From: Rhodothermaceae bacterium
GTDB lineage: Bacteria; Bacteroidota; Rhodothermia; Rhodothermales; Bin80
Assembly (NCBI GenBank): GCA_009838195.1
Contig: VXSC01000007.1
Location: 1 to 64,000 of the forward strand
DNA length: 64,000 nt
Direction of reading: 5' to 3'
Position 1 is the stretch's first letter; each line of letters begins with the position of its first letter. Shown here in pieces: positions 37,096 through 50,900 of this stretch. The translations under genes were made by a program, and so were the position numbers. The notes beneath the pieces were generated by a model, which worked only from the letters and a program-made list of their open reading frames with translations, was not told the origin of the DNA and did not search any database.

Positions 37096-37848
37096 ATGGA
37101 AGCGAAGATGATGCCCAGCCACCATTCGGCGCAGAGGAAGCTGTTGGACGAAATAATACACAAGATTAGGGATTGGCAACCTGGCGAATCGTCTTTCGAA
37201 CCAACCGTTATCGACTGGGTCATCAAACTACAAACATTGGCTGACCACATCCTTCCCAACCACATCGCCGATAGTTTGAACGCAATTGACGTGGATATCG
37301 ATGATCCTACATGTGCGTTTTGGGCCAAGTCGAAACTTGATGCCTTCGTTCCCATCATTGAAGACGCGCTCGCCTCCATCTCGAGAGGTGGGGTGCCACC
37401 TCCTAACCCAGATCTGCCTGACAACATTACCAGAGATTACGAGGAGGCTGCGACTATCGTGGAGCTCTCTCCACGTGGTGCTGCGGCATTGCTGCGCCTG
37501 TGTATTCAGAATCTTTGCATACATCTCGGCGAACCGGGGAAACGTTTGAATAAAGATATAGGTGAGCTGGTTGCGAAGGGCTTGGATGGGCGCGTCCAGC
37601 AAGCATTGGATACGGTCAGAGTCCTAGGCAACGAAGCCGTTCATCCAGGTACACTTGACCTAAAAGACGATCATCAAACTGTCAAGAAGATGTTTGCCCT
37701 CGTCAATATGATTGCCAAAGAGATGATAACCCTTCCAAGGGAGAGGGACGATCTTTTCAACACGCTTCCTGAAAACAAACGCGAGGACATTGATAAGCGC
37801 GATAAGGAGGTGAAAGCTGCAGCCTCCAGATCCCGTAGAGCTGACTGA
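37096..37848 (+). CDS. DUF4145-domain protein
   Basis: The 250-residue protein has a helical N-terminus and a C-terminal DUF4145 region: EAATIVELSPRGAAALLRLC, then LNKDIGELVAKGL, VLGNEAVHPGTLDLKDD and a final helix. DUF4145 is found alone and attached to restriction-system helicases and nucleases, suggesting a role next to defence enzymes, but its reaction is unknown. Here it overlaps the opposite-strand nuclease-like fragment by 92 bases at its 3' end. It follows the TIR-like pair after a 212-bp gap. Confidence 0.75.
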   Translation: MEAKMMPSHHSAQRKLLDEIIHKIRDWQPGESSFEPTVIDWVIKLQTLADHILPNHIADSLNAIDVDIDDPTCAFWAKSKLDAFVPIIEDALASISRGGVPPPNPDLPDNITRDYEEAATIVELSPRGAAALLRLCIQNLCIHLGEPGKRLNKDIGELVAKGLDGRVQQALDTVRVLGNEAVHPGTLDLKDDHQTVKKMFALVNMIAKEMITLPRERDDLFNTLPENKREDIDKRDKEVKAAASRSRRAD

Positions 37849-38140
37849 CTGGGATCGTCTGCACGGCCGCGGGGCGCCCAACGGGCACCTCCGGAATCAA
37901 ACGTGTCTCTAGCACAGGATGCAGTCTTTTGGCTTCTACTATCACACTCGCAGAATGCGAGCCTGACCATGTGCACACATAATCAGGCATACGCCCCTCG
38001 TGGCGGTCCATATCAATCTCGCTGATGGAAAAGCCCAATACTTTCATGAGCGCGGGAGTAATTAAGCGGTTACATACCTCAGATTCCTGAGCCTTGGGCT
38101 TTTTTTTAAGCTCGTTCAGGGCGTTGGCGTACCAAGCCAT
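37757..38140 (-). pseudogene. Truncated PD-(D/E)XK nuclease-like protein
   Basis: The first 80 residues (MAWYANALNELKKKPKAQES, then NRLITPALMKVLGF, PDYVCTW and ASVIVEAKRLHP) look like the N-terminal nuclease region of restriction enzymes, with the PD...(D/E)-x-K core D-x(n)-E-x-K in PDYVC and VEAKRL. After about residue 85 the sequence has no relation to that family, and its 3' end lies inside the DUF4145 gene. The rest of the protein is lost. A group II intron is inserted about 25 bp upstream of its ATG. Confidence 0.6.
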
Positions 38141-38164: not shown

Positions 38165-39560
38165 GAATGTCAAGTAGCCGAGGGGAATCTCACCCCTCGG
38201 CTCTCACGGAACCGTGCGTGAGCCTCTCAACTCACACGGCTCTTACCATACAGCCGTTTGGAATTGAGTAAAGGTGGACCATAAAGAAACTCCCAGTGCA
38301 CAAACAGCCCAGAATTTTGACGCGCAAACTTATCCAGCCATCGCCATGATCGTCTCCAATGCCCTCTAAACCGCTTGTACTTCCGCATCATCCATCGGAT
38401 CAGATGTTGGTTAATGCTCTGAAAGAGCCTTCTCAGCTCGGATTTGAAGAATGCGCCATAGTAGTCTATCCATCCGCGTACCGTGGCATTGATCTTGCCA
38501 GCGATATACTCCATGGGGCGAGGACTCATGCGAGCCAACCCCCAACTACGAATGGTTTCCCGTATGGCCTTCGCCGCCTTCCGGCTCACCGCTGGATTGA
38601 ACCCTAGAAAAATCCTGCCCTCACGACTCATGGTCATTCTTGGTCGAAGCGTGTAGCCCAAAAAATCAAATGAAACGTTTGGATACGTGCCGTTTCGGCG
38701 CGTCTGTTTGCAGTATACAATCCGGGTTTTGTCCGGATGTAAGGTTAGCTGACAAACCGTAAAACGATCCTTCAGCACCTGCCAAAGGTCTCGGGCTTGT
38801 TCCTCGCTTGTGCAGTGACACACGATGTCGTCTGCGTAACGCTCAAATGGAATCTGCGGATAATTCAGTGCCATCCATTTGTCAAACGCGTAATACAGAA
38901 ACAGATTCGCCAACAGTGGACTGATGACTCCGCCTTGCGGGGTCCCGACATCCCGAGCCTCTTCCGTTCCGTCTGGATGGATCACCGGGGCCGTCAGCCA
39001 GCGCTCTATGTATAAGAGTACCCACTTCTGATCCGTGTGACGCCGTACCGCTTTCATCAACAGTTCATGGTCTATCGTGTCAAAATATGCCTTGATATCC
39101 ATGTCCAATACCCATGCTCGCCGCCAGCATCGCGTTCGCGTCTGTCGCAGCGCATCATGTGCCGATTTATTCGGTCGGTATCCATAAGAATCGGAATGGA
39201 ACTCGCGTTCCAAGACCGGCTCTAATTCCTGCTTGACCACCATCTGTGCCACCCGATCCGCTACCGTTGGTATTCCCAGAGGGCCAAAGCCGTAGTCTCG
39301 CCACGTATATGCCGCAGGCCAGTTGGCCAATAAACAGGTTCCCGCAACCTCGTCCCGGAATTAATATACGACCCCGGTTTTGACCATCATCTTCTATTTT
39401 CGACACGTAATCCATGGTTCACTTTCGTTCGACTCTACGACCCACACCTTATAGGTTTCTATACCTACCTTTTCCCAGCACGCTCACCACGATACCTCTT
39501 TAATGCCGCAGCTGTGGGTGGTTTGCAACCTCCGCCTGTACAGCGGTTGCGGGGGGGCCT
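38165..39560 (-). mobile_element. Group II intron, internally deleted
   Basis: On the minus strand the sequence ends with a domain V-like hairpin (GAGCCGTGTGAG... GCACGGTTCC, about 38,242-38,208) and a domain VI-like stem (GAGCCGAGGGG... CCCCTCGGC, about 38,203-38,173) closed by CTACTTGAC. Upstream, 39,560-39,340 carries the conserved intron leader pattern GAACGAAAGTGAACCATGG and GGTTGCGGGAACC. Between them lies a reverse-transcriptase gene lacking its first part. The left limit is uncertain. It sits in front of the truncated nuclease gene. Confidence 0.75.
38227..39330 (-). pseudogene. Group II intron reverse transcriptase/maturase, N-terminus missing
   Basis: The 367-codon frame contains RT motifs PLGIPTVADRVAQMVV, YGYRPNKSAHDAL, LDMDIKAYFDTIDH, GTPQGGVISPLLANLF and the active-site FERYADDIV (YADD). 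These are followed by a maturase X domain (NATVRGWIDYYGAF) and no HNH endonuclease. Intact LtrA-type proteins have 60-80 further residues before the PLGIP block; here that part is absent, and intron leader RNA joins straight to it with a frame change. It may still be transcribed, but self-mobility is unlikely. Confidence 0.85.
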
Positions 39561-40207: not shown

Positions 40208-40490
40208 GCTCGAACTATTTTGGTGACAATTTACCGGAGTCTATTCATTTAAGCAAGAAACACTCAACCTAGTTTTGCCACATTTAGTGATATAAACCTT
40301 AGGCCGAGACAATTCAAATCGGTGCCATTGTTGAATCACCTTGGCACTGAAAGAGGTGGAGCCATGACCGAAGCCATTCAAACACATGGATCAACTCCGT
40401 GCCCTGCAAGTCATCCATTAGAACATGCGCGGCGACAACAAGTAGAATATGCCCACAAGTGGTCACGAGTGTCATCACGAATGCCATCAT

Positions 40491-41258
40491 ATGTCGACTG
40501 ACTCTGAGACTAGGTCTCGCTATAGCAATCCACCTATAATTGAGGCGATATGCGAGTTTTACTTCGCACCTGGACTGGAATGGGATCCTACCCTACCCGG
40601 CAAACTGCACACTAATTTGGGAGATGAGTATCCGGGGAAACCACGGCATCAGGAAAGTATCGAATTTGGGGTGCAATTTCGAGGAGGATCCCCCCAAAAT
40701 TTCCAGTTTGGGGAGGGGCCTAAGAAAGTCCAGCTGATTACAGAGAACGAGAAACGGATAGTCGGGATTGGGCGTGATGTACTCAGCGTGCACATGCTCC
40801 GTCCTTATCAGGATCCACACGATTCGGACAAGACAGGATGGGACGAGTTTCGACCTCGGATCAGTAGGGCACTCAGCGCTTACTGGGAAGTGGTACGACC
40901 GCAAGGAGTGAAAAGAGTCGGCATCAGGTACATAAACAAGCTTGTTGTCCCCGGAGAAGTGACGACAGCCAAGGAATATCTGAATTGTGCCTTGCCCGAG
41001 GTGGATGGCCTGCCAAGTCGTTTGGTCAACCTTATGAGCCAAGTTGAATATGCCTATCGCGACGGTGTAAAGCTGGCCTTGTCCCAGGGAAAGGTTGAGG
41101 GTGGATTTATACTCGACATCGCCGTGATTGGAGAGAGCGACGACGTACTTACTCTGGAGGACACGGGTGCACTAGTAGACGACCTTCGCGGTCGAGAGAG
41201 AGAAGCGTTTGAAGCTGTTATTACAGATAAAGCAAGAGGACTTTTCAATGCAGCTTGA
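40491..41258 (+). CDS. TIGR04255 family protein
   Basis: The 255-residue protein matches the sporadically distributed TIGR04255 family: RYSNPPIIEAICEFYF at its N-terminus, ENEKRIVGIGRDVLSVHMLRPY, GVKRVGIRYINKL and FILDIAVIGE. The biochemical function of the family is not established. The ATG at 40,491 is preferred. An in-frame ATG at 40,449 would add a His-rich repeat (HECHHECHH) unlike the family. It overlaps the next gene by 11 nt. Confidence 0.8.
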   Translation: MSTDSETRSRYSNPPIIEAICEFYFAPGLEWDPTLPGKLHTNLGDEYPGKPRHQESIEFGVQFRGGSPQNFQFGEGPKKVQLITENEKRIVGIGRDVLSVHMLRPYQDPHDSDKTGWDEFRPRISRALSAYWEVVRPQGVKRVGIRYINKLVVPGEVTTAKEYLNCALPEVDGLPSRLVNLMSQVEYAYRDGVKLALSQGKVEGGFILDIAVIGESDDVLTLEDTGALVDDLRGREREAFEAVITDKARGLFNAA

Positions 41259-41895
41259 GTGGCCCACAGCCGCGCAAAAAACAGACTGGGTTATTATGCT
41301 GCCCCTCCCAGGGCAGCCGCACAGCCGGCCATGGACATCAGATGTTCCGCGCGGTCCATTGATCTCGTCCGTGTCACTTGCGGCTTCGCCGGATGTTGTT
41401 GAGTTACAGAAAATGTATGTGGTTATCAAACAGACACTGCAATCCACTTGGGCCATGGCGGATCAACGGGATGCGATGCAAGGACTGTTCCACTTAAGGA
41501 ACTCGTTGTATGCCTCGTTCGAGGCCGAACCACTTGAAGACGGCATGGATCATCCAGCCGAGGATATCATTGGTGATGTAGTACGATCCACAGATGATCC
41601 TCGCGTGTTTGATTGGCTTTCTAGATTTTGTCTTGATGTCGAGCACCCTGCTTTCTCTTCTTCGATATTACGTTGTCTCGGGCGCCAAATGCGTCCCGGA
41701 ACAGAGTCGTGGCGTGCCGAGCTTGTGCGGAAAGCATTGACAATGAATGATGCCGAGATACGAGACGCAGCACTGCAAGCAGCGGAGTCTTGGGGCGGGT
41801 TGAGTATGCGATATATACTTGAGGCTGGGGTACAAAACGAGCCGTTACCGTGGCTTCGAAAGTACATGCAAGATGTCATTGAGGACCTGAGATAG
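41248..41895 (+). CDS. Unknown protein with HEAT-like helical repeats, second gene of TIGR04255 operon
   Basis: The 215-residue product begins MQLEWPTAAQKTDWVIMLP. Its C-terminal half is built of helical pairs (VFDWLSRFCLDVEHPAFSSS, SILRCLGRQMRPGTESW, LVRKALTMNDAEIRDAALQA and SMRYILEAGVQNE), reminiscent of HEAT/armadillo units. No catalytic motif is visible. The ATG is inside the end of the TIGR04255 gene (11-nt overlap), so the two are coupled. The next gene begins 5 bp after its stop. Confidence 0.7.
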   Translation: MQLEWPTAAQKTDWVIMLPLPGQPHSRPWTSDVPRGPLISSVSLAASPDVVELQKMYVVIKQTLQSTWAMADQRDAMQGLFHLRNSLYASFEAEPLEDGMDHPAEDIIGDVVRSTDDPRVFDWLSRFCLDVEHPAFSSSILRCLGRQMRPGTESWRAELVRKALTMNDAEIRDAALQAAESWGGLSMRYILEAGVQNEPLPWLRKYMQDVIEDLR

Positions 41896-41900
41896 GGAAA

Positions 41901-42416
41901 ATGTATTTAGCGCGGATGATCTCACAGGCTAAATGGGAACGAAAGGAATGGATGGATGAAGGGGAGATCTCGGCAGATGCAGTGACCGCTGATCTTAGAA
42001 CTCAGAATAACAGTCTATCCTTTTGGAAATGCGCCAAGAAAACGCACAAAGAAATCGAGAACGTCGCACTAGCCATAGCGGCCGGTCGCGATAAAATTGA
42101 TAAGGTTGAGATTGTACTAATCGACAACGAAGACCTAAAAACTGATGGTCAAAACATAGAGACCTCCAATGGGCGTACGCCCGTCGAAAGCTTGGTCAAG
42201 CGTCATGTGGATCTGATGCAGCTCGATTATACCCGTCTCGGCAAAGTCGCGCGTCGCGTAGCGTCTGCAGTTGCCGCCAACCAATGCCATAGGGTATCAA
42301 AGCAGCGTGTTCAGACGCTCCTTGTGACAGCGATTACCAGGGATGAGACACTACAGATCGATAGGCTAAACGAAAACCTCCGTCCGCAAGTGCAGAAATT
42401 GCTCAATCGATACTGA
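41901..42416 (+). CDS. Unknown protein, third gene of TIGR04255 operon
   Basis: A 171-residue protein (MYLARMISQAKWERKEWMDE) with helical, charged segments and no recognised domain. It contains ALAIAAGRDKIDKVEIVLID (about 57-76) and RVASAVAANQCHRVSKQRVQ (about 122-141). It starts 5 bp after the upstream stop. Function is unknown. Its place as the last gene of a compact three-gene set suggests it acts with the other two. Confidence 0.7.
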   Translation: MYLARMISQAKWERKEWMDEGEISADAVTADLRTQNNSLSFWKCAKKTHKEIENVALAIAAGRDKIDKVEIVLIDNEDLKTDGQNIETSNGRTPVESLVKRHVDLMQLDYTRLGKVARRVASAVAANQCHRVSKQRVQTLLVTAITRDETLQIDRLNENLRPQVQKLLNRY

Positions 42417-42912: not shown

Positions 42913-43911
42913 ATGTCTCCCATTGAAGAGGTAGGAGAATTTAACCTGATCCGCCGCCTCGCCTCAATCAGTTTGCCGGGTACCAAGCCACCGGTCATTA
43001 CTGGAGTCGGGGATGACGCGGCGGTGTACCACCCAAAACCCGGGATGGTACAAGTCGTCACGACAGACGCTTTGATTGAGGGCTATCACTTTGATTTTGA
43101 CTTCTACAGGATGGACCATGTCGGTTACAAAGCCATGGTCGTAAATCTCAGTGATATCGCTGCAATGAATGCTCAGCCCATACTGGCGACCGTAGCACTG
43201 GGGATACCTGGATCATTTTCAACGGAAGACCTCGAGTCTCTCTACCGTGGCCTCACTAATGCGGCTTCCAAATACGGTGTCCAGATTATTGGCGGGGATA
43301 CGACGCGTTCGCCGGTGCTTTTGCTGTCAATCACGATCATCGGTGAAGCGCCTGGAACCAACCTAGTGCATCGAAACGGGGCCAGCCCCGGTGACAGCAT
43401 CTGTGTCAGTGGAAATTTAGGGGATGCCGCAGCCGGACTTGATCTGCTACGCAGCCATACTGAACCCAACACACTCGAACCTGAAGTGTGGGATGTCCTC
43501 ACTACCCGTCACCTGATGCCTACCCCCCGGCTTGATCTCATACACGAATGGGCACAGAAAGAAGTGCGCCCCTCTGCCCTCATTGACATATCAGACGGAC
43601 TCGCTAATGAAGTGCATCATATCTGTGCAGCATCCAGCTGTGGAGCTATCCTGTGGGAGTCCAAGCTCCCCCTGTCCCCGGAGTTGCGCTCAGGAGCCCT
43701 GAAATCCCGCACTGTCATTGACTACGCATTAAACGGGGGAGATGACTATGAACTGCTGTTTACCGCCCCTTCTGGAACACTTGAGCGGATGTCTTCAGAC
43801 TCCTTTACCACCATTGGAGTCATTACCTCAAAGGATGTCCTGATCCACCGGGAAGATGGGACGCTTGAGCCTCTGAAGCCTGAGGGACATGATCATTTCA
43901 CGGCTGTCTAA
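42913..43911 (+). CDS. thiL: Thiamine-monophosphate kinase
   Basis: ThiL phosphorylates thiamine monophosphate to thiamine pyrophosphate. The 332-residue protein starts MSPIEEVGEFNLIRRLASIS and has the family motifs GVGDDAAVY (metal/ATP site, residues 32-40), VVNLSDIAAMNA, GGDTTRSP and GGDDYELLFTAP. It belongs to the AIR synthase-like superfamily. Length is normal. No other thiamine genes are nearby and no TPP riboswitch was recognised upstream. Confidence 0.95.
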   Translation: MSPIEEVGEFNLIRRLASISLPGTKPPVITGVGDDAAVYHPKPGMVQVVTTDALIEGYHFDFDFYRMDHVGYKAMVVNLSDIAAMNAQPILATVALGIPGSFSTEDLESLYRGLTNAASKYGVQIIGGDTTRSPVLLLSITIIGEAPGTNLVHRNGASPGDSICVSGNLGDAAAGLDLLRSHTEPNTLEPEVWDVLTTRHLMPTPRLDLIHEWAQKEVRPSALIDISDGLANEVHHICAASSCGAILWESKLPLSPELRSGALKSRTVIDYALNGGDDYELLFTAPSGTLERMSSDSFTTIGVITSKDVLIHREDGTLEPLKPEGHDHFTAV

Positions 43912-43999: not shown

Positions 44000-44881
44000 C
44001 TATTTTGTCTTCCAAACTCTGATGCCCTTCTCCTTTAGCTCCTGACCCTCTGGAGTAGTCGGGCGACCATGTAGCAACCAGCAGTCCGATAAACGCTTCA
44101 AAGCTGCCCCTGTGGTCTTGAATCGGTCCTTTCTCAGTTTTGAATTTGAACCGTCAACATACAATATCTCCTCAGCAAATCCCGCTGCCAGTGAACTGAC
44201 CATTGCTGTTTCACCGGATTCTTTCGACGCTTTCGGGCTTTGCGCCGTGACCATCACCAGTTGGTCGCTGCTGATTGCCTGGCGGTGGGCTTTTTTTAGG
44301 CGCTGCTTCAGTTCTCCATCGTGCAGCACCCAGATTACACGCCCCAGGCACTCTTGCACTGCCTCCACAATCTTACGGGCCATCTTGAGATGTCCAGCTA
44401 CAACCACGGTCTGCCCCTGCTTCGTTGCGTCTGCAGCCACATCGCAAGCTTTCCCAATCCTTCCCTCTGGAATAGCATCCGGCCCGAAAATCGCCAACCC
44501 TTTGCTGGTTAGCAGGCTCTGATCTCCGGTTCCAAAAAGTAACGGCGGCGCATCATTGCGCATACTCGCTCGGATTGCTTTGGGATAATCTGAATCACTG
44601 CGAGCAAACACCCAATAACCTTTTCGCTGCCACTCCTCCAGGCAGAATCCAAGGTTAATCCGACGACCTAGCAGCCAACGAAGACGATCCGAACTAACTC
44701 CCGCAATCTCTGGCAAGGATTGAGCTTCAAGCAGGTCCCGGGGCCACTTCCCAGATCGGTAAAGAACCGTAGCTACCCGATTATACTCTGCGCCTCCGAG
44801 CGGCCTGAACTCCTCCTCCCCTCCTTGAAATGCACACAGAAGCAGGATCGCACGGGCATCATTCGTGAGAGAGTACTTCAT
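44000..44881 (-). CDS. DprA/Smf-like protein, diverged (third gene of RecQ-PRT operon)
   Basis: The 293-residue protein follows the DprA layout: helical N-terminus, LEEWQRKGYWVFARSDSDYPKAI (the Y-P entry into the Rossmann part), then GLAIFGPDAIPEGRIG in place of the usual GSR motif, QTVVVAGHLKMARKIVEA in place of VSGxARGID, and VIWVLHDG. The altered residues suggest it does not load RecA onto DNA in the classical way and may bind nucleotides or single strands differently. It lies 102 bp downstream of the other DprA-like gene. It resembles the ShosA-type DprA homologues of defence systems, by inference. Confidence 0.8.
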   Translation of the reverse strand: MKYSLTNDARAILLLCAFQGGEEEFRPLGGAEYNRVATVLYRSGKWPRDLLEAQSLPEIAGVSSDRLRWLLGRRINLGFCLEEWQRKGYWVFARSDSDYPKAIRASMRNDAPPLLFGTGDQSLLTSKGLAIFGPDAIPEGRIGKACDVAADATKQGQTVVVAGHLKMARKIVEAVQECLGRVIWVLHDGELKQRLKKAHRQAISSDQLVMVTAQSPKASKESGETAMVSSLAAGFAEEILYVDGSNSKLRKDRFKTTGAALKRLSDCWLLHGRPTTPEGQELKEKGIRVWKTK

Positions 44882-44982
44882 TTTTTACCAGGACGATACA
44901 TATGGCATAGTTGTATTTCCCAAGTCACCGGAATTCATTTGTACTGCGCGTTCCCATGCGCCCATATCTGTATCTGCATTGA

Positions 44983-46116
44983 TTAAAATAGCTCAAGCTG
45001 TTCCTCAAATCTTACGGAAACCTTAATACTCGGAGTATCCGTCTTCTTTGCATCACTTTTTTCAGTTCCAGCATCCGCTTTCGACTCATCCTCTGCAGTG
45101 TCCTCAGTAACCAGTGATTTAGGGGGGTCCACCTGCGCCAATTCGCCTTCAGGCTCTGCCAATTGTGAAGGCTCGTGAGAACTGATTTCCGCACGATCTT
45201 CAAACAAACCTTCATGAACCGCCATCTCCATGTCAATCCATGAGGTTGCACCTGCCTTAAGCAGGCGTTCCGCTGCTGCGGTAGTTTGACCCATGCACCA
45301 TACAAAGCACTTTCTCTGGTCCAGTACACGGTACATAGCATCTTCTAGGCAGTAACGATCCCCGCTAAGCTCTGTACCATCTATATACATCGCTGAATCA
45401 CAAAGGGCCATGGCAATGCGTCCAACTTCCGGCTCCTGTGAGAGCGAACGTTTATCGGCAGGACTTCGCCCTGAGAGCATCATGAATTTACCCGCAGCTT
45501 TTGCTCGGCGAAATGATTTTCGGAGCGGCTCCCCAAATACTGGACCCTGAAGCACCCAAATAACAGATCCTCCGTGACCGATTCCGGATTCGGCGACCCC
45601 AGCCGAGATCGTCTGTTTGCCTGCCGCGATAGTGATACGATGACGCTGAGCACAAAAGGCGGCCATGGCTCGAGCGTGTTCATTGGACTGCTCCATGACC
45701 TGGTCCGGACCAATCACGGCCGTTGCAGCTCCATTCAGTAATTTGGGCTCTCCCACGCCAAAAAGCACTGGAGGGGCAAATGATCTAAGATGTTGACGAA
45801 CTCGCTTTGGATAGGCAGCATCCCCCCGGCCAACGATCCAGTAATCTCTCCGCTGCCACTCTTCTAAATAGAATCCCAAGGTAATACTGCGGCCCAAGAG
45901 TGCGATCAAGCGGTCATCACTGAGTCCTGTTTGCCGGGCTGCCGTTTCCACACATGTTCGATCAATCAGATTCCCTGGCCGGTAGTCATTCTGATGGAGC
46001 CACCGCACAAGTACATTATACTCCCGAATCTCAAGGGGAAGGTGCTCTCCTTCTCCTCCAAGCCAAGTGCAGAGGAGCATCGTTACATTGGTGTCACCAG
46101 ACAGTGGCCAAGTCAT
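44983..46116 (-). CDS. DprA/Smf-like protein, diverged (second gene of RecQ-PRT operon)
   Basis: The 377-residue product starts MTWPLSGDTNVTMLLCTWLG. It has the same layout as its neighbour: GFYLEEWQRRDYWIVGRGDAAYPKRVR, then ATAVIGPDQVMEQ in place of the GSR loop, HRITIAAGKQTISAGVAE in place of the GID loop, and VIWVLQGPVFGEPL. The C-terminal 90 residues (from about 285) are acidic and low-complexity (EPEGELAQVD, EDESKADAGTEKSD), absent from the smaller paralogue. An ATG at 46,116 is chosen because it is 1 nt from the recQ stop; the frame opens earlier at 46,176 inside recQ. Confidence 0.8.
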   Translation of the reverse strand: MTWPLSGDTNVTMLLCTWLGGEGEHLPLEIREYNVLVRWLHQNDYRPGNLIDRTCVETAARQTGLSDDRLIALLGRSITLGFYLEEWQRRDYWIVGRGDAAYPKRVRQHLRSFAPPVLFGVGEPKLLNGAATAVIGPDQVMEQSNEHARAMAAFCAQRHRITIAAGKQTISAGVAESGIGHGGSVIWVLQGPVFGEPLRKSFRRAKAAGKFMMLSGRSPADKRSLSQEPEVGRIAMALCDSAMYIDGTELSGDRYCLEDAMYRVLDQRKCFVWCMGQTTAAAERLLKAGATSWIDMEMAVHEGLFEDRAEISSHEPSQLAEPEGELAQVDPPKSLVTEDTAEDESKADAGTEKSDAKKTDTPSIKVSVRFEEQLELF

Positions 46117-46117
46117 A

Positions 46118-48217
46118 TTATTCAGCCAAATTTTGTTTGACCAATGCAGCTGGCAAAACCGCAGGGCAACCGTCATGGCGCAGAAGCGCTGCTAATGTTG
46201 TGACTGTCCAACCACTTACAATTATATCATCAATCAGGATTGTCGGCTGCTTACACGCCTTCTCCACTGTAAATGCATCTGCAATATTTCGAGCACGCTG
46301 GATCGGATTTTTTTGTCGGCTTTGCTGTCCCCCTATACCAGTCCTTGAAGCCGTGCGAACCAAACGCAAACCAAGTCGGTCCGCAACAACTCCTGCCAGA
46401 ATTGGCACATGCTGTCTATCCCTGTGCGGTGGCACGTACGTGACACACCGAAACTTCGAGGCCTTTTTCTTCAACACCCTAACAAATGCCTCCACAACTT
46501 CATCAGAATACTGCTCCGCAAACCTCCTTTCGTTTAGAATCTGATCACTCAGACTTCCTTCAAAAGCTCTACAAAGAGCGATCCCCCACTTCGCACGGTA
46601 CTCCGACCCGATTGTGCTCGTCTCATGAATCGGATGATTTGAGAGAAGGGAAAATGGCCAGTTCTGATTTGGACGGATACGTATTTCGCGCTTACCCATA
46701 AACTGTTCCGCTTCGCGAACCAATTCTTCTTTAGGTCGATATGACTTGTCTGCCCTGTTCGTACAGTTTCGGCATCGCCCACAGCGCGTTGCGGTCTGGT
46801 CATCTAGGGCACGCTGTAAAAATGCCATTAGGCATCCTCTGTGGTCCATGTACTCACGCATCTGTACTTGCTCACGCTCACGAATTTGCCGCAACCGGGC
46901 AATGGAATCCAGAGGGATCTGAAATCCATCTGCCTCTCCCGTTGCATACCATGCCCCCCGCTCCTTTATGACAGGAGAAGGAGATTCGAGTGAAGCAAGC
47001 TTGAGCACTTTTTCAATCCTGCTTTTTTTGAGATTGACCTGTAACATGATTTCGGGGAGAGTCAGTCCACCATCGGCCTCTTCCAGTATTCCAAGAACCT
47101 GATCAATCTCTTCTTGAGGAGGATAGGCGTTGTCCAAAAAGTAATCCGCAATTCGCTCGTCTTCTTTCCCCCACATCAAAAATCCGTACGCATCTTGAAT
47201 ACCTCGACCAGCCCGCCCCACCTGTTGGTAATAATGCACCACTGACCCCGGACGCTGATAATGGATGATGAACTTTAGGTCCGGCTTGTCAAAGCCCATT
47301 CCAAGAGCAATGGTTGCGACCAGAACTTTCAGCTCGTTCTTCAGGAGCGCCTCTTCCAACTCTTCCCGCTCTCCCGTATCTCCGTAGTAGGCTTTCGCAT
47401 CAATCCCCCGGGATTTAAGCCAGTCAGCAACCAGATCCGCATCCTTGCGTGTGAGCACATAAATGATCCCACTTCCCGATAAATGCGGAATCGCCTGAGC
47501 AATCCACGCCAGCCTTGTCTGGGGATCTGTTAATTTGAGATTATGAAGTTGCAGACTGCGTCGGATCAGGCTCCCCCGTGTCACCTGAATGTCCTCCCCC
47601 AGTTGCCTGCGGACATCCTCAACCACCCGGTCATTTGCCGTCGCAGTCGTAGCAACAATCGCAGCTCCCTCGGGAATCATTTCCTGAACTCTGCGAATGC
47701 GCTGATAATCAGGCCGAAAATCATGCCCCCAATCAGAGATACAATGTGCTTCGTCAATAATCAGCATCCCAAATCCACCTTTCACCATCGGGAGCGTTCT
47801 TGAGAAAAATCCTTCATTTGCCAACCGCTCAGGTGTAACCATGAGCAGATCTACCTCATCTGACTTGAGTTCTTTATGGATTTCACCCCAGGAATCAAAA
47901 TTATCCGAGGTCATCCTTCGCGCATTCAATCCGAGTGCGTCTGCTGCCAGTTCCTGGTTACGCATCAATGCCAAGAGGGGAGAAATCATAAGTGAAGGGC
48001 CCGCCCCTCGTTCCCGTCTGAGCTTGGTTGCAATCGTGTATACCATCGTTTTTCCCCAACCCGTACGCTGCACAATCAGGACCCGATTCCCGCTTACGGC
48101 CTGTTCGATACTTTCCCACTGACCGTCGTGAAACTCGGCCTCCTGATTGCCGACCGCATCACGAAGATAACCGGTGGCAATATCCCTGACGGTATCCGGA
48201 TTCTTTAGAGATGGCAT
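46118..48217 (-). CDS. RecQ-family DNA helicase fused to a C-terminal phosphoribosyltransferase domain
   Basis: The 699-residue protein begins with a full RecQ-type SF2 helicase: Walker A TGWGKT (52-57), DEAHCISDWGHDFRPDY (155-171), ATTATA (189-194), ALGMGFDKPDLK (304-315) and QVGRAGRG (332-339). A zinc site has C462 and C479/C482/C485. From about residue 560 a ComF-like phosphoribosyltransferase domain follows, including YVPPHRDRQHVPILAGVVA (594-612) and the PRPP loop TILIDDIIVSGWT (659-671). RNA-binding HRDC is absent. The gene starts 6 bp after the upstream metalloprotease stop and is followed by two DprA-like genes. The combination suggests nucleotide-linked sensing on DNA, by inference. 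Confidence 0.88.
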   Translation of the reverse strand: MPSLKNPDTVRDIATGYLRDAVGNQEAEFHDGQWESIEQAVSGNRVLIVQRTGWGKTMVYTIATKLRRERGAGPSLMISPLLALMRNQELAADALGLNARRMTSDNFDSWGEIHKELKSDEVDLLMVTPERLANEGFFSRTLPMVKGGFGMLIIDEAHCISDWGHDFRPDYQRIRRVQEMIPEGAAIVATTATANDRVVEDVRRQLGEDIQVTRGSLIRRSLQLHNLKLTDPQTRLAWIAQAIPHLSGSGIIYVLTRKDADLVADWLKSRGIDAKAYYGDTGEREELEEALLKNELKVLVATIALGMGFDKPDLKFIIHYQRPGSVVHYYQQVGRAGRGIQDAYGFLMWGKEDERIADYFLDNAYPPQEEIDQVLGILEEADGGLTLPEIMLQVNLKKSRIEKVLKLASLESPSPVIKERGAWYATGEADGFQIPLDSIARLRQIREREQVQMREYMDHRGCLMAFLQRALDDQTATRCGRCRNCTNRADKSYRPKEELVREAEQFMGKREIRIRPNQNWPFSLLSNHPIHETSTIGSEYRAKWGIALCRAFEGSLSDQILNERRFAEQYSDEVVEAFVRVLKKKASKFRCVTYVPPHRDRQHVPILAGVVADRLGLRLVRTASRTGIGGQQSRQKNPIQRARNIADAFTVEKACKQPTILIDDIIVSGWTVTTLAALLRHDGCPAVLPAALVKQNLAE

Positions 48218-48223
48218 AGACGC

Positions 48224-50719
48224 TTAATGACTACACCAGTCAGTGGCAGTGGCATCAAGAAATGCATGTTGCATCTGACGACGTGCCTCAGAACCGATTG
48301 GAGACCCTGGGGGGATCCTGGTGCCGACTAGACGCTCTTCCGGCTCATATTCTCTAAAGAGATAGCGTTCAATATCGGCGAGCACCATCTGACGGTGGTA
48401 ACGGGTTTCCCGATCATTCTGAGAGACTCTGCTGTCGGGAATCCACTCTGCAAACTCACGCAATCGCTCTGCGACCAAGGCTCTGACCGCAGGAGCGGCC
48501 TCCCGGTCACTGGCCAGTCCAATCAACTCATCAATCCATACCTGCTGTACTACACGCTGCAATTCAGCCTCGTACGGGTCATCCGCTACAGACACCCCCC
48601 AGACCACATCACTGACGAGTTCCATTACCCCGTGGAAATCAGGTAATGTGGCATCCCGATCCGTCTGATAGGCCATGCGAGCGGCACGCTCGGGGTTCAG
48701 AATTTGCGTAAATACCATGGTAGCAACTGCAGCAGCAGGAGTATAAGGGTCAAACGTCAAGCCCGTATGCCGCTGAAACAGTTCCCGGTGCATCGGGAAT
48801 CCAGGTGGGCGCGGCGGCAAATTCAGCCGCATACTCTCTGGAACCCGGAGAGCCTCAGCCGAAACGACCTCCAGTAGCACCTCCAGTGCCTCTTCCTGAA
48901 CCGCACCTTCAACCGGCTCAACCAATGCCTGTTGATCCCCACGCATCGCATAGGTGTAGGTCACGCCACCGAGTAATTTGGCGGTCGCCTCTATCTGGTA
49001 GCGATGTCGCAGGTAAAGCGGAACCAGAACTTCCTCCATGGTCGCCAATGGCTGACCTGTACGGATCACCTCCTCCCCAAAACGTGCCATAGCAGCTTCG
49101 CGGACCGCCATTTCATGGCGAAGGGCACGAACCATATCATCGCCGTTATCCCACAGATTAGAGAGCGGGTGTGCTGCACCAGTCGGGCGGGCATCCGCGT
49201 CGGTGATGTAATATAGTCCATCCTCCCATGCCCGCCGTAGGATCGCGTCCAGTAAAGCCCCCTCACTGTCGTCTGGCAGTGGCTGCGCGTACCCATAAGC
49301 AATTGCAACCTTGTCCCACTCACCGATACCAGTCGCGTACGCTGCCTCCAATTCAATTTCTCCGTTCTCATCCAGTACAGCATACGGGGCAGGATAATCC
49401 ATTACAGATGCACGGCTATTGACCGAAGAGGCAAAATTATGACTGAGTCCCAACGTGTGCCCGACTTCATGTGCAGATAACTGTCGGATCCGTGCCAGTG
49501 ACATAGATAGCATCGGATCCTCCGCTGAAAGGGAATCTCCATAAGGAGCCAAGAGCCCTTCGGCAATGAGATAATCCTGCCGCACCCTGAGTGAACCAAG
49601 TGAAACATGCCCCTTGATGATTTCACCGGTACGCGGATCTGTCACACTCGAACCGTAACTCCAGCCTCTGGTCGCACGGTGAACCCACTGGATCGTGTTG
49701 TATCGCACATCCATGGGATCCGCGTCCTCAGGGAGCATCTCAATGCGAAAAGCATTGGAAAACCCTGCTGCCTCAAATGCATCTGCCCACCACCGAGCAC
49801 CATCTAGAAGTGCTCCCCTGACTGGTTCTGGCGTGCCCGGGTCCAGGTAATATATGATCGGAGATACCGGATCACTCATTACTGAATCCGAGTGCTGTTT
49901 AATCAGGCGATGCCGCCGGATATAGCGCTTCCTCATGTCCTCCCCGATCGGTGCTGCATAATCCATGTAACTGATCGAACCATACCCGGCCCCGGGATGG
50001 AAAACTCTCGGTGTGTACCCATCATCGGGCAGCATCACAAATGAATGCCTCACGCTCAAAGTTACCGAATAGGGGTCCGCTGCCACATCACGTACATAAC
50101 GGCCGGGAGCTGTGGATGTAAAAGTGATTCGCGCTTCCATCTCTGTGTTATTTGGAAATGCTTTGAGCATAGATGGAACCGGAGCACTGCGACTCTTATC
50201 CAGGCTGAAGCTCCCCTGCTGTGCACCCCGAAGTCTGCGAACAACGTCGTTCGCATCCCGAACAACGAAATCCGTCGCATTCACAAGTACTCTCCCGGCT
50301 TCCTCCGCTTCCACCTTGAACCCCCAGATAATCGCTTCGGCAAAGGCTTCACGTACCGATGCACGCTCTGCCTCTGATTCAGAATCGGCGCGATAGCGCA
50401 GATTCGGCATGACCAATAGGATTTTGGGACCGCTGCGCTCAAAGCGGACCAGACGTGTACTGCCCAGTTGGCTCCGATCCAGTCCAATATCGTTCGACCC
50501 CAATCCCGCAGGCATCGAGGTCACATAAATAAATTCCTGCTCCAGGGCAGGTATTTCCAGGTAGATCTCTCCACTGGCTGAATTCCAGTATATCGGAAAA
50601 AATCCGTCGCGTTTATCCATGCCCGATGTTTTCTCGGTAATGGATGTGCCCCCCTGTCCGTACACTGGCACAGAGGCAAGGCATAATAGCATGTAAAGAA
50701 AGCGCATAGGGACATTCAT
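48224..50719 (-). CDS. Secreted zinc-dependent metalloprotease (DUF5117/DUF5118 type)
   Basis: The 831-residue product begins MNVPMRFLYMLLCLASVPVYG, a signal peptide. It has the zinc motif HEVGHTLGLSH (H417, H421, H427), the extended H-x3-H-x5-H metzincin pattern, followed by the Met-turn-like SRASVMDYP. A flanking N-terminal domain is of the DUF5118 kind (GFFPIYWNSASGEIYLEI, EFIYVTSMPAGLGSND) and a DUF5117 region follows. It should act outside the cytoplasm. The ATG at 50,719 places the signal peptide correctly; a more upstream ATG at 50,848 adds an unrelated 43 residues. Its stop is 6 bp before the recQ-PRT gene on the same strand. Confidence 0.87.
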   Translation of the reverse strand: MNVPMRFLYMLLCLASVPVYGQGGTSITEKTSGMDKRDGFFPIYWNSASGEIYLEIPALEQEFIYVTSMPAGLGSNDIGLDRSQLGSTRLVRFERSGPKILLVMPNLRYRADSESEAERASVREAFAEAIIWGFKVEAEEAGRVLVNATDFVVRDANDVVRRLRGAQQGSFSLDKSRSAPVPSMLKAFPNNTEMEARITFTSTAPGRYVRDVAADPYSVTLSVRHSFVMLPDDGYTPRVFHPGAGYGSISYMDYAAPIGEDMRKRYIRRHRLIKQHSDSVMSDPVSPIIYYLDPGTPEPVRGALLDGARWWADAFEAAGFSNAFRIEMLPEDADPMDVRYNTIQWVHRATRGWSYGSSVTDPRTGEIIKGHVSLGSLRVRQDYLIAEGLLAPYGDSLSAEDPMLSMSLARIRQLSAHEVGHTLGLSHNFASSVNSRASVMDYPAPYAVLDENGEIELEAAYATGIGEWDKVAIAYGYAQPLPDDSEGALLDAILRRAWEDGLYYITDADARPTGAAHPLSNLWDNGDDMVRALRHEMAVREAAMARFGEEVIRTGQPLATMEEVLVPLYLRHRYQIEATAKLLGGVTYTYAMRGDQQALVEPVEGAVQEEALEVLLEVVSAEALRVPESMRLNLPPRPPGFPMHRELFQRHTGLTFDPYTPAAAVATMVFTQILNPERAARMAYQTDRDATLPDFHGVMELVSDVVWGVSVADDPYEAELQRVVQQVWIDELIGLASDREAAPAVRALVAERLREFAEWIPDSRVSQNDRETRYHRQMVLADIERYLFREYEPEERLVGTRIPPGSPIGSEARRQMQHAFLDATATDWCSH

Positions 50720-50900
50720 GGTCAATTGAGTCTGTTGTGGACGAAATGGAATAAAGGGAAGGGATCTCGGTTCCATCCGCCTCGGCAATATAGATATTTC
50801 GCCGCTTGGTTCACGAACTGGAGCTTTGAACTCTAAAAATGAAGCCATTTTTCGCTAACCTCGTTAAACCGTGTTCCTGGTCAGCAACCCATCGCGATGA

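What the first reader, a model, noticed from the sequence alone, without database searches (positions are those of the whole stretch)
44000..48217. Operon of RecQ fused to a phosphoribosyltransferase plus two diverged DprA-like proteins
Seen directly: a 699-residue RecQ helicase with a PRPP-type loop (ILIDDIIVSGWT) at its C-terminus, one base away from a DprA-like gene and then a second DprA-like gene. Both DprA proteins have lost the GSR and GID loops, and the first has an acidic tail. Known: ShosTA defence pairs a phosphoribosyltransferase with a DprA-like protein, and ComF/RecQ/DprA all handle single-stranded DNA. Inference: this could be a RecQ-armed relative of such a pair that recognises invading DNA and uses the PRT domain as effector, with two DprA-like regulators. 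The duplicated DprA pair and helicase fusion are unusual.
Basis: partly seen in the sequence, partly recalled or inferred. Interest (0 to 1): 0.82.

Follow-up and report, generated by a model that had tools for sequence, protein, structure and literature searches.

The report
Fixed PsyrTA operon with paired regulators
This is a known type of bacterial self-poison and anti-virus module (a DNA helicase joined to a nucleotide-transferring enzyme, held by DprA-like partners) that one bacterial genus has made a permanent chromosomal fixture, doubled its regulator, and apparently tied by a short tail to the DNA-replication clamp.

Summary
In detail: on the minus strand a 699-aa RecQ-like helicase with a C-terminal phosphoribosyltransferase (PRT) domain is followed 1 nt later by a DprA-like gene and then a second one. 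The architecture is not new. It is PsyrTA (= RqlHI), a published toxin-antitoxin/defence system (PADLOC PsyrT 786 bits, full length; both DprA-like genes match PsyrA).

What is unusual is new evidence. The operon sits at one site (met-zincin/psyrTA/thiL) in all 10 genomes of its Rhodothermales genus, its tree equals that of its neighbours, and it is under purifying selection. The genus has no canonical RecQ, canonical DprA or ComEC. The regulator duplicated at the base of the genus (the sister genus has one copy at the same site); mobile PsyrTAs of the family doubled theirs independently, by fusion. The GSR/GID loops are lost across this clade. The first regulator ends in an acidic linker plus QLELF, the beta-sliding-clamp-binding consensus. 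Such a tail is kept in 10/10 genus members, recurs in 22/57 PsyrA (0/46 canonical DprA), and was predicted, then found, in 5/6 PRT- or HAD-linked DprA-like proteins on plasmids.

Most likely: a clamp-docked, vertically fixed PsyrTA. Clamp binding, toxicity and defence are inferred, not shown.

The parts
46118..48217 (-). psyrT: RecQ-like helicase fused to a C-terminal phosphoribosyltransferase domain, 699 aa
   Evidence: PADLOC PsyrT PDLC03928 785.9 bits over residues 14-696; RecQ subfamily TIGR00614 250.6 bits; Foldseek to RecQ cores
48047..48067 (-). Walker A RTGWGKT (residues 51-57) of PsyrT
   Evidence: invariant in 11 syntenic orthologues
46121..46570 (-). phosphoribosyltransferase domain (about residues 550-699)
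   Evidence: PF00156 in 6 of 11 orthologues, best E 8.7e-4; ComF-family GntX model at 634-687, E 0.001; pLDDT mostly 80-90
46205..46240 (-). PRPP loop ILIDDIIVSGWT (residues 660-671)
   Evidence: D663, D664, S668, T671 invariant in 11 orthologues
44983..46116 (-). psyrA1: first DprA-like regulator, 377 aa from ATG 46116
   Evidence: PADLOC PsyrA PDLC03927 155.4 bits; PF02481 36.8 bits; A1 clade of 10 species
45001..45228 (-). acidic, probably disordered linker of PsyrA1
   Evidence: 22 D+E against 8 K+R in the 81 residues after the DprA-like domain; residues 305-377 have pLDDT under 50
44986..45000 (-). C-terminal QLELF of PsyrA1: putative beta-sliding-clamp-binding motif
   Evidence: matches the published consensus QL(S/D)LF (PMC9690074); Q-x-x-L-F kept in all 10 genus PsyrA1; MutS of the genus has QM[STPA]LF
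44000..44881 (-). psyrA2: second DprA-like regulator, 293 aa, no tail
   Evidence: PADLOC PsyrA 156.9 bits; PF02481 28.1 bits; A2 clade of 10 species
48224..50848 (-). context: DUF4953/DUF5117 met-zincin gene, 6 nt upstream of psyrT on the same strand, conserved neighbour
   Evidence: Pfam; synteny in all 10 genus genomes and in the sister genus; spacing
42913..43911 (+). context: gene labelled thiL here, the other conserved neighbour (convergent)
   Evidence: beside the operon in most genus genomes; lies directly beside the met-zincin gene in relatives without psyrTA

Best explanation
A PsyrTA (RqlHI-type) operon that has become a fixed chromosomal locus of a Rhodothermales genus. PsyrT is a RecQ-like helicase carrying a PRT effector domain. 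Its regulator was duplicated into PsyrA1 and PsyrA2, which probably act together as a hetero-pair that holds the PRT in check. PsyrA1 carries an acidic tether ending in a beta-clamp-binding motif, which would station the complex at replication forks. When the fork is disturbed (phage replication, or single-stranded DNA unwound by the helicase) the hold on the PRT is released, and it modifies nucleotides or DNA and stops growth. Because the genus has no other RecQ or canonical DprA, the complex may also do fork maintenance. Shown here: gene identity, conservation, vertical inheritance, duplication, loop loss, conserved tail motif. Inferred: hetero-pair, clamp binding, release, defence or maintenance role.
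For: Identity: PADLOC PsyrT 786 bits full length and PsyrA 155/157 bits. RqlH toxicity needs its PRT domain, RqlI counters it, and the two proteins interact (PMC4670107). Fixed locus: syntenic in 10/10 genus genomes and in sister-genus G010; empty site in G011, G013 and G023; T tree topology identical to that of six flanking genes; dN/dS 0.13-0.18 for T and 0.21-0.30 for A1/A2. Only RecQ of the genus. Pairing: A1 and A2 each a clade of all 10 species, G010 with one copy outside both; mobile systems of the family carry fused double-DprA PsyrAs in separate clades. Clamp motif; positive control MutS; out-of-sample prediction met in 5/6. RqlI 1-320, lacking the C-terminal 80 residues, still rescues nearly fully, so the C-terminus looks like a targeting rather than an inhibiting part.
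Against: No experiment, and no complex could be modelled here. The PsyrA1 model is poor (pLDDT 48). The motif was noticed before it was counted, only the plasmid set is out of sample, and that result used the loose form of the pattern (strict form 1/6). Position 2 is often G rather than L/M. Many PsyrA (E. coli, Acinetobacter) lack the motif and end in a winged-helix-like C-terminus. PsyrA2 of the window has none. The ligand loops are lost in this clade, so sensing may differ from mobile PsyrTA or be absent.
Confidence: 0.55

Rival explanations
1. An ordinary PsyrTA defence/toxin-antitoxin cassette that simply has not been lost yet; its fixation and double regulator mean nothing special.
For: All hallmark genes are present; other members of the genus also carry mobile PsyrTA copies; TA modules resist loss.
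Against: Same site in all 10 species with a tree identical to the flanks, strong purifying selection over dS about 1, both paralogues kept in all 10, and loop changes shared by the whole clade. Selfish persistence alone does not explain the conserved tail motif.
Confidence: 0.25
2. Domesticated genome-maintenance complex: psyrT replaces RecQ and the DprA-like pair loads or shields ssDNA at the clamp; no toxin or defence role remains.
For: Genus has no other RecQ and no canonical DprA, although nearly all other families of the order have both; fixed locus close behind a met-zincin gene; ligand loops changed.
Against: PRT catalytic residues are invariant, so the effector is still selected. The sister genus keeps canonical RecQ as well as this locus, so the locus arose before the loss.
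Confidence: 0.15
3. The QxxLF tail is not a clamp motif but binds PsyrT itself (antitoxin contact) or mimics the SSB C-terminal tail.
For: Acidic linker plus terminal LF resembles an SSB tail (own knowledge; for the tail); antitoxins often use short linear motifs.
Against: The F is followed by residues in several orthologues (QGELFA, QIDLFSSVTDE), unlike SSB tails. The first-position Q is nearly invariant. The same tail occurs on DprA-like proteins whose partner is a stand-alone PRT and on MutS. The RqlI C-terminus is dispensable for inhibition (PMC4670107).
Confidence: 0.2
4. Housekeeping DprA pair plus RecQ serving natural transformation.
For: They are the only DprA-superfamily and RecQ genes found in the genome.
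Against: ComEC is absent in all 10 genus genomes; scores far below the DprA cut-off; GSR/GID loops lost.
Confidence: 0.03

Closest known systems
PsyrTA (Sberro 2013; PADLOC/DefenseFinder system)
   Same: RecQ-PRT toxin followed immediately by a DprA-like antitoxin; both profile models match
   Different: vertical fixed locus, two separate regulator genes, GSR/GID loops lost, clamp-type tail; most other PsyrTA loci looked at have one PsyrA and a sporadic distribution
RqlHI of extraintestinal E. coli (Russell and Mulvey 2015, PMC4670107)
   Same: helicase-PRT plus downstream DprA-like regulator with close spacing; PRT acid loop intact
   Different: RqlI has a predicted C-terminal HTH; the window PsyrA1 has an acidic linker and QLELF instead; paired regulators
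ShosTA (PRT + DprA; Rousset 2022, PMC9122126)
   Same: PRT effector with DprA-like partner; ShosA-like proteins also often end in a clamp-type motif
   Different: PRT is stand-alone, no RecQ helicase; some loci add a HAD hydrolase
Canonical RecQ and DprA
   Same: helicase core; SLOG/Rossmann domain
   Different: no RQC or HRDC domain match in PsyrT; DprA loops and winged helix absent, scores under cut-off

Membership tests
PsyrTA/RqlHI | RecQ-like helicase with C-terminal PRT domain in one protein | tested here: met
   PDLC03928 786 bits, 14-696 of 699; PF00156 in 6/11 orthologues
PsyrTA/RqlHI | DprA-like regulator encoded immediately downstream | tested here: met
   1 nt spacing; PDLC03927 155 bits; a second copy follows
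PsyrTA/RqlHI | PRT-dependent toxicity neutralised by the DprA-like partner | not testable with these tools
   catalytic acids invariant, which is compatible with it
PsyrTA/RqlHI | anti-phage activity | not testable with these tools
   none here
PsyrTA/RqlHI | sporadic, mobile distribution typical of defence cassettes (usual, not strictly defining) | tested here: not met
   syntenic and vertical in 10/10 genus genomes
ShosTA | stand-alone PRT effector | tested here: not met
   PRT is fused to a RecQ helicase
housekeeping DprA | score over the equivalog cut-off and GSR/GID loops | tested here: not met
   18.7-29.9 bits against 191.15; loops GPD / AGHLKMA
canonical RecQ | RQC winged-helix and HRDC domains; over the equivalog cut-off | tested here: not met
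   270 bits against 640; no RQC/HRDC Pfam match
beta-clamp-binding proteins | Q-L/x-x-L-F type motif in a disordered tail, conserved | tested here: met
   10/10 genus PsyrA1; consensus from PMC9690074
beta-clamp-binding proteins | physical binding to DnaN | not testable with these tools
   needs a binding assay

The most novel reading that the evidence does not exclude
PRT + DprA-like immune/toxin-antitoxin modules (PsyrTA and ShosTA-like) as a class are docked on the replication sliding clamp through a C-terminal motif of the DprA-like subunit, so that they read the state of the replication fork. In this genus such a module has become the permanent, only RecQ/DprA complex of the cell, with a duplicated hetero-pair regulator.
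Probability: 0.45. Interest if true: 0.78.

Novelty: new variant of a known kind. Interest (0 to 1): 0.6.

Why it matters
What PsyrTA/RqlHI and ShosTA sense is not stated in any paper found in the searched library. A conserved clamp-binding-type tail on the DprA-like subunit gives a direct, cheap hypothesis: the modules are stationed at the replisome and respond to its takeover. A lineage in which such a module is fixed, duplicated and the sole RecQ/DprA complex is also a natural case of a toxin-antitoxin/defence system turned into, or kept as, part of core DNA metabolism.

Tried and rejected
A defence-island setting: rejected, the neighbours are core genes (atpD/atpC, met-zincin) in all species. 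Housekeeping DprA: rejected by score, loops and lack of ComEC. Viral origin: 15 distant helicase matches only in viral contigs and three partial ones in phages. PDB profile search with PsyrA2: nothing. PDB sequence search with the PRT region: only a chance-level hit to ribose-phosphate pyrophosphokinase, E 0.37. AlphaFold: PsyrT pLDDT 63, PsyrA1 48; too weak for a fold search of PsyrA1, so none was run. The Foldseek rows shown for PsyrT are all RecQ helicases and do not test the PRT domain. Y-family polymerases as a clamp-motif control: the genus has none, so MutS was used. The ShosA profile detects every canonical DprA, so it says nothing about ShosTA occurrence.

Full report
What is there. 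On the minus strand lie psyrT (46118-48217, 699 aa), psyrA1 (ATG 46116 to 44983, 377 aa) and psyrA2 (44881-44000, 293 aa). The ORF tool's longer psyrA1 start (46176) is unlikely because the PsyrA profile match begins at residue 25 of that ORF. PsyrT matches the PADLOC PsyrT model over its whole length (785.9 bits) and both downstream proteins match PsyrA (155.4, 156.9 bits). Pfam sees DEAD, Helicase_C and a weak RecQ zinc domain, and the PRT domain in 6 of 11 orthologues. The system is therefore PsyrTA, equivalent to RqlHI. In extraintestinal E. coli the PRT domain of RqlH is genotoxic, RqlI restrains it and binds it, and a C-terminally truncated RqlI (1-320) still rescues (PMC4670107). [quoted passage not shown]).

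A fixed locus. All 10 genomes of the genus carry a PsyrT of 773-791 bits. In all ten it lies beside the met-zincin gene, atpD, atpC, an outer-membrane-like gene and an MFS gene, and in most also near thiL. Sister-genus genome G010 has the same locus with one psyrA. In G011, G013 and G023 the met-zincin gene lies directly beside thiL, an empty site. The PsyrT tree has exactly the topology of a tree of six flanking genes, with all splits supported. dN/dS is 0.13-0.18 for T and 0.21-0.30 for A1 and A2. In 7 of the 10 genomes psyrT starts 5-13 nt after the met-zincin stop codon, so the operon may be co-transcribed with it (inference). Named records place the relatives in Rhodothermales metagenome-assembled genomes. 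Several genus members have further, probably mobile PsyrTA copies elsewhere, for instance 913 and 930 bits in G005 and G007.

No other RecQ or canonical DprA. The own genome (99% complete) has no second RecQ: the next match is 39 bits. In the genus nothing exceeds 269 bits against the RecQ equivalog, whereas G010, G011, G013, G014 and G015 of the family score 388-793. No genome of the family passes the DprA cut-off, while 41 of 43 genomes of the rest of the order do. ComEC and Y-family polymerases are absent from all 10 genus genomes. The DprA-like genes are thus not competence DprAs. Four genus members (G002, G003, G005, G006) have one further, ShosA-like DprA gene below the cut-off. Absence claims rest on draft genomes, but ten of them agree.

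Duplicated regulator. In a tree of 67 DprA-like domains the genus A1 and A2 form separate clades of all ten species, with G010's single PsyrA outside both: a duplication at the base of the genus. G001 and G009 carry a further A2-like domain fused behind A1. The mobile PsyrTAs of the same family (G002, G003, G005, G007, G014, G015) have single proteins of 642-717 aa with two DprA-like domains, whose halves form their own clades elsewhere in the tree. Doubling therefore arose at least twice, which suggests that two DprA-like units work together (inference).

Lost loops. In both paralogues and in G010 GSR is replaced by GP[DES] and the GID loop by AG[HKRQ]... (a few A2 vary in the second loop). 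Mobile PsyrAs mostly keep GSR and SGGA[RK]G; besides this clade, the PsyrA in L047 also reads GP. The loss is therefore a feature of this clade and not of PsyrA in general. The PRT acids and helicase motifs stay invariant, so the effector half is still under selection.

The tail. PsyrA1 ends ...EEQLELF. The published bacterial clamp-binding consensus is QL(S/D)LF, C-terminal (PMC9690074). In the genus the linker between the DprA-like domain and the end is acidic and of variable length and sequence, yet Q-x-x-L-F is kept. The script finds it in 9 of 10 linkers, 14 motifs in all against 0.16 expected in shuffles (maximum 3 in 20,000). In the tenth (G001) the QGELF falls just across the domain boundary used. 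Across 57 PsyrA proteins, 22 have Q..[LMI]F in the last 20 residues (shuffle mean 0.47, maximum 4 of 2000; other ORFs 1/283). Of 46 canonical DprAs none has it (Fisher 2.6e-7). Counted by sequence cluster it is 4 of 15 (loose form 8 of 15, shuffle mean 0.59). The genus MutS, a known clamp binder in other bacteria (own knowledge), has QM[STPA]LF in 10 of 10. The pattern was chosen after seeing the tails, so I then predicted it for plasmid-borne ShosA-like proteins before reading them. Of six linked to a PRT and/or HAD gene, five carry it at the very end (QISMDF, QTSMAF, QMSML twice, QMTLF; the sixth ends QYKFF), and none of five others does (lone, helicase-linked, HAD-fused or canonical). That result uses the loose form; by the strict form it is 1 of 6. 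The two QMSML proteins (Bradyrhizobium, Sinorhizobium) have similar tails and are not independent. ShosA-like genes in the genus and family also end QLELF, QLQLGF or QFSLF, some beside a PRT and a HAD gene.

Mechanism. Best supported: PsyrT is held by PsyrA1/PsyrA2 and the complex is docked on the sliding clamp through PsyrA1. Disturbance of the fork releases the PRT. Gene identity, fixation, duplication, loop loss and motif conservation are shown; docking, release and the biological role are inferred. The strongest rivals are an ordinary retained cassette, a purely domesticated maintenance complex, and a tail that binds PsyrT rather than the clamp. I found no paper in the searched library that mentions a clamp motif in these systems (titles, abstracts and selected passages were read, not every paper in full), and subscription papers and preprints are not covered.

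Noticed in passing
L080:10528-12438, L081:8722-11208, L085:9233-11638, L237:792-2928, L238:784-2952: Three-gene cluster PRT + DprA (ShosA-like) + HAD hydrolase, in this family and on rhizobial plasmids (PRT and HAD not annotated in L238); the DprA ends in a clamp-type motif (QLQLGF, QFSLF, QISMDF, QTSMAF).
   Followed up: partly
G000-G009 (own genus): The genus lacks ComEC, Y-family polymerases, canonical RecQ and canonical DprA, an unusual set of losses in DNA uptake and repair.
   Followed up: partly
L038, L039, L044, L046, L078, L079: Probably mobile PsyrTAs with PsyrA proteins of 642-717 aa made of two fused DprA-like domains; where loops could be read, the first half usually keeps GSR and the second often does not.
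   Followed up: partly
L029:1013-2848 and L037:9585-11774: PsyrA1 fused to an additional A2-like domain (611 and 729 aa).
   Followed up: partly
L086 (G012:C127:3404-4519) and L087 (G007:C88:37237-38370): Open frames of 1256-1404 aa with a RecQ-like helicase core about 28% identical to PsyrT; identity not determined.
   Followed up: no
window 38227-39330 and 37757-38140: Group II intron reverse transcriptase/maturase next to a short ORF without a Pfam match that looks like a broken gene.
   Followed up: no
window 40449-42416: Three plus-strand ORFs (269, 228, 171 aa) with no Pfam match over the curated cut-off and no PADLOC match.
   Followed up: no
window 48217-48224: psyrT starts 6 nt after the met-zincin stop; spacing is 13 nt or less in 7 of 10 genus genomes, suggesting co-transcription.
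   Followed up: partly
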